Below, piece after piece: positions 19,650 through 38,940 of a stretch of 64,000 bases of DNA (the stretch's first letter is position 1; each line of letters starts with the position of its first letter). Source of the stretch: Pluralibacter sp. UBA7423 (lineage in GTDB: Bacteria > Pseudomonadota > Gammaproteobacteria > Enterobacterales > Enterobacteriaceae); the NCBI GenBank assembly GCA_002470465.1, contig DKMD01000037.1, positions 1-64,000 of the forward strand, written 5' to 3'. The notes under the pieces are model-generated. The model was given only the letters and a program-made list of their open reading frames with translations, made no database searches and was not told the DNA's origin. Both the position numbers and the translations under genes were made by a program.

Positions 19650-19736
19650 TGGTAGCCGGAGTGGGACTTGAACCCACACAGCGCGAACGCCGAGGGATTT
19701 TAAATCCCTTGTGTCTACCGATTCCACCATCCGGCC
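19650..19736 (-). tRNA. leuZ: tRNA-Leu (anticodon TAA)
   Basis: An 87-nt class II tRNA with long variable arm and encoded CCA end. The acceptor stem pairs GGCCGGA with TCCGGCT, including one G-T pair. The anticodon loop reads TTTAAAA, giving anticodon UAA. It is the last of three tRNA genes downstream of pgsA, matching glyW-cysT-leuZ of E. coli. Confidence 0.96.
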
Positions 19737-19749
19737 TCGGGAAATAAAG

Positions 19750-19823
19750 TGGAGGCGCGTTCCGGAGTCGAACCGGACTAGACGGATTTGCAATCCGCTA
19801 CATAACCGCTTTGCTAACGCGCC
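19750..19823 (-). tRNA. cysT: tRNA-Cys (anticodon GCA)
   Basis: A 74-nt tRNA with acceptor GGCGCGT / ACGCGCC, the T-loop GTTCGAC, anticodon GCA in the loop TTGCAAA, and encoded CCA. It is the only tRNA-Cys gene in E. coli, where it sits at the same place. Confidence 0.97.
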
Positions 19824-19861
19824 GATATTGCTAACACCCGCAACTGCCGATGTTTTTAAAC

Positions 19862-19937
<76 letters not shown>

Positions 19938-36264: not shown

Positions 36265-36777
36265 CTAAGGATAAATATACTGGGTCAAAGTGACAGCGGG
36301 CTGCTGGTTAGCCCTCAGCGTGGAGACGACCTTACCGGAATGCCGGGGTTGCACGCTAAGCCAAAGCGTATGCAAGCCCCCTTCCGGCTGGTCATGAAAC
36401 TCGAGCGTCATATCGCCGTTATGGCTGCTGAATCGCCACGGCTGCGGGTAGAGGGCTTCGATTTCAAACATATCCATAAACTGCCCGCCGAGCGTCACGG
36501 TATAGCTCTCTCCCGGCGGCGCGTTGAGCGTGACTTTCAGATCCATATCGCTTTGGTTGCGACCAAAACGCTCGTAATCGACCTTCAGAGAGTGGTTGCT
36601 GTTTACCGCGCTGCCGTTGCTGAACATCCCTTTTGAAAACAGCCCGCAGAACCCGGCCAGCAGCACTAAAATCAGCAACACAAAACCGTACTGTCGTGCC
36701 GCATTTTCCACCCGTAGCCAGAAGGGGTGCTCTGCTACAGGCGCTGATGAAGACGATGAGGATTTACTGTCAGCCAT
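36265..36777 (-). CDS. Hypothetical single-pass membrane protein
   Basis: A 170-aa protein that I cannot assign to a family. It has a short Ser-rich cytoplasmic start (residues 4-11), one membrane helix (about 29-47) and a soluble beta-rich tail (about 60-170), probably periplasmic. The start ATG 36777 is chosen because the 62 residues upstream in frame read like non-coding DNA. It is the first gene of a two-gene operon with the DUF421 gene, so the two may work together in the membrane. Confidence 0.75.
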   Translation of the reverse strand: MADSKSSSSSSAPVAEHPFWLRVENAARQYGFVLLILVLLAGFCGLFSKGMFSNGSAVNSNHSLKVDYERFGRNQSDMDLKVTLNAPPGESYTVTLGGQFMDMFEIEALYPQPWRFSSHNGDMTLEFHDQPEGGLHTLWLSVQPRHSGKVVSTLRANQQPAVTLTQYIYP

Positions 36778-36915
36778 AATGACCCCGACGCGTGAGCGAA
36801 CCGTAGAGGAAAGTATGGTCGCTTCCGGGCAGACCGTAAGTGACTGATGAAAAAATAGTGACAGGAAGTTATAGAGATATATCCCAACCAGCCCGGGCCG
36901 GGTTTCACATTTTAT

Positions 36916-36934
36916 TAAACCTGCATGCCCATCA
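36916..36934. repeat. Left att-like direct repeat (displaced fliE tail)
   Basis: This 19-bp sequence matches 38630-38648 at 18 of 19 positions in the same orientation. Read on the minus strand it encodes the last residues of FliE (MGMQV followed by a TAA stop), about 1.7 kb from the fliE gene. It is probably the original fliE end, cut off when an element integrated. Confidence 0.8.
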
Positions 36935-37309
36935 TATGAGCATACATTTTTCATAATCGACAAAGATCGTCTCAGAGCACACCAAATAACAGATGATTAG
37001 CGTCGTTGAAAACATCAGTCGTCTAAGTTCACCTTAGATCGAGTGCTGTTTTATGCCTCCCCCATGTCCCATCATCGAAGCTTTACGAGCGCGTTTCCAA
37101 AGTTACTATCCCCTATATTTTCTCCTTCCGCCGTTCCCGGCGGGAATCTCAGCAAACCATGACATCAGGACGATGAAACAGAAAACCTATCACTACCTTC
37201 AGTTCCAGGCTGAGGGTAGTGATGTCGTTACTTCCGCAGTCAGCGAGGTTTATTGCTTAGTAAAAGAAGATGTAGTCTTACCTGATAAACCTTGAATTGC
37301 CGTCAACGC

Positions 37310-37609
37310 CTAAAATCGAAAAGGTAGCATTGCGCGGATTTCACTAAACCAATGGTTGACTGCGGGGATTTCCTCCAGGAGCCAGAAACCTAACACAATC
37401 ATCACAATACCCATTACCAGATGAAAAATAATGCTGAACCAGAATTCAATAGGTTTGTCATCTTTATGAATGTACTCCTTTCGGCTCGTTCCTTTGAATG
37501 TTTTGGTATAAACGCCACGACGACAGTAGATAAATGATTGAGCCAAGGAGATTGGACCAACCAAAAAAGCTGCGCATACGGTGAACCAATATTGAAAACC
37601 CATCGCCAT
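37310..37609 (-). CDS. Unknown small membrane protein in the fliE island
   Basis: A 99-aa protein with two predicted membrane helices (about 7-27 and 55-79) joined by a basic loop (YTKTFKGTSRKEYIHKDDKP). I recognise no family. The start ATG 37609 has no strong ribosome binding site. It lies inside the prophage scar, with no shared operon. Small two-helix proteins on such elements are sometimes immunity or exclusion proteins, but nothing here proves that. Confidence 0.5.
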   Translation of the reverse strand: MAMGFQYWFTVCAAFLVGPISLAQSFIYCRRGVYTKTFKGTSRKEYIHKDDKPIEFWFSIIFHLVMGIVMIVLGFWLLEEIPAVNHWFSEIRAMLPFRF

Positions 37610-37845
37610 TCAATCCATTTAATGATTTTTCCCATTATTGCACAGGTAGTTCAGATTCCGCTCAGGATGGCATAAGCATCCGCTACTCACTCGAACGTGT
37701 CGGCATAGTGGTTAAACCTGGACGGCATCAGCAAACGTTCGTGGATGTATCTACCTTCACCGCGGCTGTGAGCGCACCTACACCAAAGTCCTTCTGATGG
37801 AAGAATATTTGAATGGTCGCAGCGACGGATTTAAACACTGAATGG

Positions 37846-38196
37846 TTATTTGTTTGGTCCGTGCGGAGCAAGACGGAATTCCAACTGATAAAGTTTTCCA
37901 TCCGGAGCTTTAAAGTCGACGTCAAAAGAGCCCGGCGGGTTAAACGGATCTGGAACGTTTCTCGCTATACACGTTGACCGCCAGGCTATATGGCCGTTTT
38001 TTCCCAAGCCAAGTGAGCGTGACTTCCACCAGTCGTACCATGACTGGTCTGTTGGCTGGTCACTGCCCTTCTCTCTTACGAACCAATGATTCCGCTTCGA
38101 TCTCTTTCCCATTTCACGAGTGGAGTACATCGGGGATGGAAGCTTTTTGTCTATCAGCATCTGACGTGCCTGATTATGCATTAACGAGAAATGCAT
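37846..38196 (-). CDS. Unknown soluble protein in the fliE island
   Basis: A 116-aa protein rich in Lys, Arg and Trp, with no membrane segment or signal peptide and no family that I recognise. The C-terminal half (DVDFKAPDGKLYQLEFRLAP) reads like a beta-rich domain. ATG 38196 is the likely start; a GTG at 38211 is also in frame. It lies 236 nt upstream of the 99-aa membrane protein gene on the same strand. It may be phage cargo, or a fragment of a longer gene. Confidence 0.45.
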   Translation of the reverse strand: MHFSLMHNQARQMLIDKKLPSPMYSTREMGKRSKRNHWFVREKGSDQPTDQSWYDWWKSRSLGLGKNGHIAWRSTCIARNVPDPFNPPGSFDVDFKAPDGKLYQLEFRLAPHGPNK

Positions 38197-38233
38197 TTTG
38201 GTCACTCTCACGCCTGTTAATCAAGGAAAAATC

Positions 38234-38602
38234 ATGAGCGAGTTTGCGCTTATTGAAATCAAGCCGGAACCTGCTCCAATGCTTTACATCACAAATGGCC
38301 TTGACGTTTACCTTGAGCAAATCTGTCAGACAGATCGGGCTGGTGTCCGCAAGGCGGCACCATCAATTACATCCGCGAGACGCTACCAGTCCCGAAATAC
38401 GGATGCATGCTGGTCGTTGGCTGCCGGTGCTAACCCGAACTTCATCGCGAAGCAAATGGGCCACACCGACGCGCAAATGGTTTACCGGGTGTACGGATCC
38501 TGGATGGCTGAAAATAACCAGGACCAGGTACTCATCCTCAACCAGAAATTGAGTGAGTTTGCCCCATCCATGCCCCACGCAGTGGGATCAGATGGATATT
38601 AA
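38234..38602 (+). pseudogene. Chimeric phage remnant: phage gene start fused to integrase C-terminus
   Basis: The 122-aa reading frame begins MSEFALIEIKPEPAPMLY, like a small conserved gene of the lambdoid early left region. From about residue 56 it becomes a tyrosine-recombinase C-terminus: RNTDACWSLAAGANPNFIAKQ, then MGHTDAQMVYRVYGSWM, which contains the nucleophile tyrosine region. The usual HxxR box reads YQSR, so a catalytic histidine is lost, and the N-terminal core-binding and most catalytic parts are gone. An internal deletion between the two genes explains the fusion. It cannot be an active integrase. Confidence 0.8.
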
Positions 38603-38628
38603 TTATAAATATCATTAGGTTATCTAAC

Positions 38629-38940
38629 CTAAACCTGCATCCCCATCACTTCCTGGTAAGCCGACACCAGTTTGTTACGCACCTGAATGCCCATCTGCAA
38701 AGAAACAGACGATTTTTGCAGGTCGGTCATCACATCGTTCAATGCCACGCCCGGCTCGCCTAAGGCAAATTTCTCCGCCTGCGCTTTGGCACTGTTTTGC
38801 GTTTCGCTGATGCGGTCCAGCGCGGCGTTGAGCTGCCCGGCGAAGCTGATAGTTGGCTGTTCTTCCACCTGCTGATTGCGGGCGACGCTGGCAGCAGCCT
38901 GCATTTGCGTCAGAACCCCTTCGATGCCTGTAATGGCCAT
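38629..38940 (-). CDS. fliE: Flagellar hook-basal body protein FliE
   Basis: FliE joins the MS ring to the rod and is the first substrate of the export apparatus. The 103-aa protein ends [11 protein letters not shown] as usual. It is a single gene divergent from fliF. Its last six codons and stop lie inside the 19-bp repeat that also occurs at 36916, so the 3' end is probably supplied by an integrated element without changing the protein. Confidence 0.96.
38630..38648. repeat. Right att-like direct repeat inside fliE
   Basis: The sequence covers the fliE stop and last codons and matches 36916-36934 at 18 of 19 positions. The integrase fragment ends 27 nt to its left, the usual geometry of an integrase next to its attachment site. 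Confidence 0.8.

What the first reader, a model, noticed from the sequence alone, without database searches (positions are those of the whole stretch)
36916..38648. fliE 3' end is an attachment site: a 19-bp repeat brackets a collapsed prophage
The last codons and stop of fliE (38630-38648) are repeated at 36916-36934 with one mismatch in 19, in the same orientation. In the left copy the minus strand still spells the FliE ending MGMQV and a stop. Between them lies an integrase C-terminal fragment beside fliE. This is the signature of integration into a gene's 3' end with the gene restored by the incoming copy. From memory, E. coli K-12 carries the integrase fragment intG beside fliE, so the flagellar basal-body gene may be a recurrent hot spot across the family. 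Integration or excision here could touch motility.
Basis: partly seen in the sequence, partly recalled or inferred. Interest (0 to 1): 0.75.

Follow-up and report, generated by a model that had tools for sequence, protein, structure and literature searches.

The report
Collapsed prophage at fliE gene end
The short repeat at the end of the flagellar gene fliE marks the two ends of a virus that once inserted itself there and has since mostly been deleted; related viruses use the same spot in other bacteria of this family, so this is a genuine but ordinary kind of genomic scar.

Summary
Confirmed. The 19-bp direct repeat (18/19) at 36916-36934 and 38630-38648 is a real attachment-site pair. The DNA inside both copies comes from one kind of lambdoid phage: 36916-37073 is 89% and 38384-38649 is 95% identical to Enterobacter phage CobraSix, and in that free phage the two pieces adjoin a single core, which is attP. 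Full integrases sit beside fliE in E. coli (7 of the 60 rows listed) and in other genera; 22 of 64 fliE loci fetched are empty sites with one core. Hybrid sites place the exchange inside TGATG, over FliE codons 98-99, so the phage supplies the last four codons and the stop. FliE stays whole. The 1.7-kb remnant keeps both ends, 0.6 kb of early-region phage DNA and about the last 74 codons of the integrase. Motility is not touched here, but in six E. coli genomes read, an IS1-bounded deletion beside a related prophage end has removed fliE to the start of fliR. fliE was already listed in print as a prophage site in Cronobacter (PMC3680222).

The parts
38629..38940 (-). fliE, whole (103 aa); its last four codons and stop are inferred to be phage-supplied
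   Evidence: ORF and Pfam/TIGR FliE; hybrid att analysis
38630..38648 (-). attachment-site copy on the integrase side (fliE 3' end; host left of TGATG, phage right of it)
38378..38602 (+). integrase C-terminal fragment, about the last 74 codons and stop; the homologous DNA run 38384-38649 is 94.7% identical to phage CobraSix
37716..38333 (.). phage early-region DNA, 78.5% identical over 619 bp to a stretch 5.4 kb from an integrase gene in same-genus genome G001
37846..38211 (-). small gene of PHROG 16212 (function unknown)
   Evidence: 4.9e-59; relatives; a 104-aa relative in the G001 stretch; no match in the phage record collection
38234..38377 (+). 5' end of an early coiled-coil gene (similar to about 38333), now joined in frame to the integrase fragment
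37310..37609 (-). 99-aa ORF, DUF2542 hit just above the Pfam cut-off; origin (phage cargo or other) not settled
36935..37072 (.). phage attP arm on the far side of the core
   Evidence: 36916-37073 88.6% to CobraSix; 36916-37072 89.8% to the HL15 distal end
36916..36934 (-). distal attachment-site copy; from codon 100 on inferred to be the host's original fliE ending
36265..36780 (-). host gene that follows the site (171 aa, no Pfam hit), then a DUF421-type gene, yedD and amyA (names recalled from the proteins)

Best explanation
A lambdoid temperate phage of the CobraSix kind inserted at the 3' end of fliE through its tyrosine integrase. The phage attP carries a copy of the end of fliE; recombination inside TGATG (codons 98-99) replaced the host's last four codons and stop with the phage's and pushed the host's own ending to the far side of the prophage. 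The prophage then lost nearly everything, in at least two internal deletions: from an early gene into about codon 358 of the integrase, and the repressor, late genes and most of the far half. What is left cannot excise by itself because the integrase lacks most of its length. Shown: repeat, phage origin of both inner flanks, attP of free relatives, intact and empty sites in relatives, exchange interval in relatives. Inferred: that the window followed the same exchange, the number and order of deletions, and loss of excision.
For: Repeat, not chance. Both inner flanks match CobraSix and IdasGreatGrand, where they adjoin one core. The 25 bases before the distal core are identical in the window and the HL15 prophage. 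Prophages or full integrases at fliE. Empty sites with one core. In UTAK-1 the fliE side reads G-TGATG-TCC and the distal side A-TGATG-AGC, exactly host-left/phage-right and phage-left/host-right against the IdasGreatGrand attP and the MG1655-type host; 30EVA1 and the window are consistent. Middle DNA 37716-38333 matches DNA near another integrase in a same-genus genome, upstream of an ERF-like gene by eye.
Against: No structural, repressor or lysis gene was recognised in the window element. 37073-37715, including the DUF2542-like ORF, was not traced to a phage beyond a weak 71% match over about 120 bp to a contig of the same genome that also bears an integrase. The 120-aa ORF found no match in the phage collection. 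The 141-bp host flank beyond the distal core matched only the window's own copies among the loci held, and the six same-genus loci shown there end fliE in GTG-TAG, not GTT-TAA, so the host's original ending is not confirmed directly. No second strain of this species was available; the nearest empty site is another species of the genus (L020).
Confidence: 0.96

Rival explanations
1. The element is the remnant of an integrative island or phage satellite that borrowed a phage integrase and fliE site, never a full prophage.
For: Only 1.7 kb remains and no structural gene was recognised; a same-genus element at fliE (G001, 9 kb) holds integrase, excisionase-like ORF, IS3-like and glycosyltransferase-like ORFs and no head gene recognised by eye, though one ORF may be tail-fibre-like.
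Against: Both ends match complete free phages and a 46-kb prophage; part of the middle matches DNA near another integrase and an ERF-like gene.
Confidence: 0.03
2. The left 19-mer is a chance or duplicated piece of fliE with no role in integration.
For: It is short and has one mismatch.
Against: 138 bp of phage arm lie directly inside it, in the same register as in free phage; no shuffle of 200 reaches 18/19.
Confidence: 0.01

Closest known systems
Enterobacter phage vB_EclS_CobraSix (Cobrasixvirus, NC_071003) and Escherichia phage IdasGreatGrand (PP925829)
   Same: Same attP core with the end of fliE, same arm; integrases 94.4% and 85.5% identical to that of the HL15 prophage; window end pieces 92.7% and 81.2% identical
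   Different: Complete free phages; the window has only the ends and a piece of early region
E. coli HL15 prophage at fliE (NZ_CP079770)
   Same: Same site, same far arm, both att copies
   Different: About 46 kb, full integrase and excisionase-family gene; its far end is followed by an older integrase remnant
E. coli K-12 integrase remnant beside fliE (intG, prophage segment PR-X; the link of these names to fliE is recalled)
   Same: Integrase C-terminal fragment next to fliE in an MG1655 derivative
   Different: One core only in the stretch held; no far arm there
Cronobacter malonaticus prophage listed at fliE (PMC3680222; table passage and section 9 read)
   Same: Prophage with insertion site fliE
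   Different: Sequence not compared here

Membership tests
Prophage of the CobraSix-type fliE-integrating lambdoid phages | Direct repeat of the target-gene end at both boundaries | tested here: met
Prophage of the CobraSix-type fliE-integrating lambdoid phages | Both inner flanks contiguous round one core in a free phage (attP) | tested here: met
   also an IMG/VR contig
Prophage of the CobraSix-type fliE-integrating lambdoid phages | Full-length tyrosine integrase | tested here: not met
   only the C-terminal part is left; hence a remnant, not a functional member
Prophage of the CobraSix-type fliE-integrating lambdoid phages | Phage structural genes | tested here: not met
   none among the four ORFs of the element scanned with PHROGs; smaller overlapping ORFs were not scanned
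Prophage of the CobraSix-type fliE-integrating lambdoid phages | Excision restores a single fliE ending | not testable with these tools
   needs the bench; empty sites in relatives have one ending
K-12 PR-X / intG remnant | Integrase fragment beside fliE | tested here: met
K-12 PR-X / intG remnant | Same (orthologous) insertion event | tested here: inconclusive
   the MG1655-type stretch is 78.7% identical over 221 bp, 71 of them fliE, while the window is 94.7% identical to CobraSix; this points to separate insertions but does not prove it

The most novel reading that the evidence does not exclude
fliE is an old prophage site in this bacterial family, targeted by more than one integrase lineage, and prophages parked there are a recurrent stepping stone to loss of the flagellar basal-body operon by IS-mediated deletion. 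Integration also rewrites the last FliE codons (Ser to Gly at the residue equivalent to window Gly100 in E. coli 30EVA1, by its two hybrid att copies).
Probability: 0.3. Interest if true: 0.55.

Novelty: new member of a known kind. Interest (0 to 1): 0.35.

Why it matters
It gives an exact attB, attP and exchange interval for a phage group whose free members are sequenced, and names a conserved flagellar gene as a cross-genus insertion site. It accounts for leftover integrase pieces beside fliE in a number of genomes, and it points to a concrete route by which prophage decay can delete flagellar genes.

Tried and rejected
Chance repeat: rejected. tRNA-type site: the only tRNAs found in the window lie at 19650-19937. 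A first script for second cores used a 19-mer shifted past the stop and missed even the window's own pair; searches replaced it. The 120-aa ORF has no match in the phage collection. My first wording took the integrase fragment as 93 codons from the protein alignment; one search showed clean homology only from about codon 358, so the report now says about 74 codons.

Literature: nine searches of an open-licence library; (CobraSix) found no paper. Of the papers listed in the others I opened seven, passages only except one section: PMC3680222 lists a prophage at fliE; PMC5811629 names PR-X as a short K-12 prophage segment without mentioning fliE or intG; PMC4393859 and PMC7545054 hold only the author name Flieger; PMC6127512 has fliE only as a regulated gene and PMC11619404 likewise; PMC7317114 matched the word flies. 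The other listed papers were not opened.

One origin for fliE targeting: rejected by AU test, p 0.0035, 29 rows against 32, with the caution that several rows have long branches and one row (G358), at a contig end, was left out of that test. Other DNA between fliE and yedD in 28 of the 64 fetched loci was not sorted; it may hold old remnants or unrelated genes. Plasmid collection: 8 records matched the attP region, one with the far arm, the others with the integrase-fliE side; only the first was opened.

Full report
Observation. Two hundred base shuffles of a 2-kb stretch, one strand, gave no 18/19 match. fliE is a whole 103-aa gene. The repeat takes in the last codons but only two of the three stop bases (TAG on the fliE side, TAA on the far side).

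Phage origin of both ends. Against the phage collection, window 36935-38628 matches CobraSix in two pieces that span only 404 bp of the phage although they are 1.3 kb apart in the window (92.7% identity; IdasGreatGrand 81.2%). Local alignment gives 36916-37073 at 88.6% and 38384-38649 at 94.7% to CobraSix. In CobraSix, IdasGreatGrand and one IMG/VR contig (L116) the far arm, one core and the integrase end follow each other directly: this is attP. A scan of IMG/VR for the arm plus the start of the core returned 36 stretches; by eye 31 of the 36 continue into a fliE-like core and 5 do not.

Intact prophages. E. coli HL15 has an integrase (431 aa) whose coding end lies 33 bp from that of FliE, an excisionase-family gene, replication, head and tail genes, and the far core about 46 kb away, followed by the DNA that follows fliE in an MG1655 derivative. 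Of 5,336 E. coli records with a match to the integrase-fliE query, 60 were listed; 7 of the 60 have the integrase next to fliE (HL15, SF10, 30EVA1, FLI21 frameshifted, UTAK-1, OkiPb01711, NZ_OZ040490) and the other 53 are about 66% identical and lie beside yecE or an unnamed DUF72 gene. In the family-wide sample of 392 genomes, 229 have a FliE match at E <= 1e-20 and 82 an integrase match at E <= 1e-40. Among the loci held, 15 genomes have an integrase of near full length facing the fliE end (one, G015, split by a frame change) and 9, the window's included, a partial one. This is a lower bound: not every integrase match was fetched and the printed fliE list was cut.

Empty sites. Of 64 fliE loci of genome contigs (66 fetched, two with distant FliE set aside), 22 have YedD within 300 bp of fliE, 11 have an integrase piece there, 28 have other DNA, and 3 could not be classed. 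None of the 22 has a second core at 17/20 or better in the downstream DNA held (10 kb for 21, 0.7 kb for one). The window, run alongside, showed its pair at 18/20 in the same test. Loci with a full integrase showed no second core either, as expected if the far end lies beyond the 10 kb held; this was not followed further there.

Where the strands exchange. IdasGreatGrand attP reads A-TGATG-TCC; the MG1655-type host reads G-TGATG-AGC. UTAK-1, which carries the phage, reads G-TGATG-TCC at fliE and A-TGATG-AGC at the far end. 30EVA1 (GGC/CAA/GTT at fliE as in CobraSix; AGC/CAG/GTG at the far end as in the host) fits but is uninformative on the left. The window (G before TGATG and GGG after it at fliE; A before and GGC after at the far end) fits too, though its own phage and empty site are unknown; GGC is the codon in three same-genus loci (L018-L020), while L021, L022 and L005 have AGT or AGC. 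FLI21 and HL15 do not resolve the codon because both copies agree there. So the exchange falls inside TGATG, over window FliE codons 98-99, and the phage provides codons 100-103 and the stop.

What is left inside. 37716-38333 is 78.5% identical to a stretch 5.4 kb from an integrase gene in same-genus genome G001. It holds a PHROG 16212 gene and the start of a coiled-coil gene; in G001 that gene is followed by one that looks by eye like an ERF-type annealing protein. In the window its first codons run into the integrase fragment in one open frame (ORF 38198-38602); clean integrase homology starts at 38378, codon ~358. 37073-37715 remains of unsettled origin; one 71% match over about 120 bp lies on a contig of the same genome that also bears an integrase.

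Integrase tree. 62 integrases of near full length (partials dropped): 29 labelled fliE and 33 other. Five of the 29 are phage or IMG/VR rows labelled by their fliE-type core, not by a neighbouring fliE. The label needs 5 changes, at least 3 forced by well-supported branches; 0 of 500 shuffles were as low. One clade for all fliE rows is rejected, p-AU 0.0035. Site choice is thus conserved within clades but was gained or lost more than once; a deep fliE group (6 rows, 48-71 bp from fliE) and two further rows (51 and 57 bp) differ from the CobraSix group (33-42 bp). The root is a midpoint and long branches make the deep placement unsure.

Motility. FliE is whole in the window, so no direct effect is expected. 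However, 18 of 5,426 E. coli genomes carry a match to the far arm, at 73-100% identity: the 7 with the integrase at fliE, 4 at 75.7% (one read, beside intS and a tRNA-Arg gene), and 7 rows at 97.2% (H128-H134, two of them named T28R). Six of these 7 were read (T28R, 63-2, TL012, MB52, PEC1003, C3728). In all six the arm is preceded by an S24-peptidase gene (named HumD in two records) and a hypothetical gene, then an IS1 (a fragment in PEC1003), then fliR without its start; fliE to fliQ are missing from the annotation of this locus. The core itself was checked in T28R only. Shared protein accessions suggest a single clone. Whether the genes lie elsewhere was not tested.

Prior knowledge. The Cronobacter pan-genome paper lists a C. 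malonaticus prophage at fliE and reports integrase clusters that share insertion sites (PMC3680222; table passage and section 9 read). The K-12 integrase remnant intG beside fliE is recalled; sequence in an MG1655 derivative agrees. No description of the fliE attP or exchange point turned up in nine searches of an open-licence library, of whose listings seven papers were opened; so that part may be unreported, but the kind of event is textbook.

Verdict. The parts of more than routine interest are the exact exchange interval, the breadth of fliE-targeting integrases, and the IS1-bounded deletion that took flagellar genes with it.

Noticed in passing
L235, L241-L245 (E. coli T28R, 63-2, TL012, C3728, MB52, PEC1003): IS1-bounded deletion from a fliE-prophage remnant through fliE-fliQ into fliR; flagellar basal-body genes missing at the locus.
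   Followed up: partly
L239, 3001-3156 (E. coli ECCWS199): A prophage beside intS and a tRNA-Arg gene still carries a fliE-type attP arm and core (16/20), as if its integrase module had been swapped and the old attP left behind.
   Followed up: no
L229 (same-genus genome G001): A 9-kb element at fliE has a full integrase, an IS3-like pair and glycosyltransferase-like ORFs resembling by eye an O-antigen modification set; its far core runs on into attP-like sequence.
   Followed up: partly
L084 26205-26390, L236 and L238 distal ends: Several E. coli fliE prophages sit beside an older integrase remnant at the same site, so the site has been used repeatedly.
   Followed up: partly
L018 10310-19400 (same genus): Nine kb between fliE and the next host gene hold ORFs that look by eye like fimbrial usher and chaperone genes and regulators, with no related integrase.
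   Followed up: no
L240 (Enterobacter roggenkampii plasmid NZ_CP109732): A 91-kb plasmid carries the phage far arm next to S24-peptidase, DinI-family and tail-fibre assembly genes.
   Followed up: no
window 37310-37609: DUF2542-like 99-aa ORF inside the remnant, of unsettled origin.
   Followed up: partly
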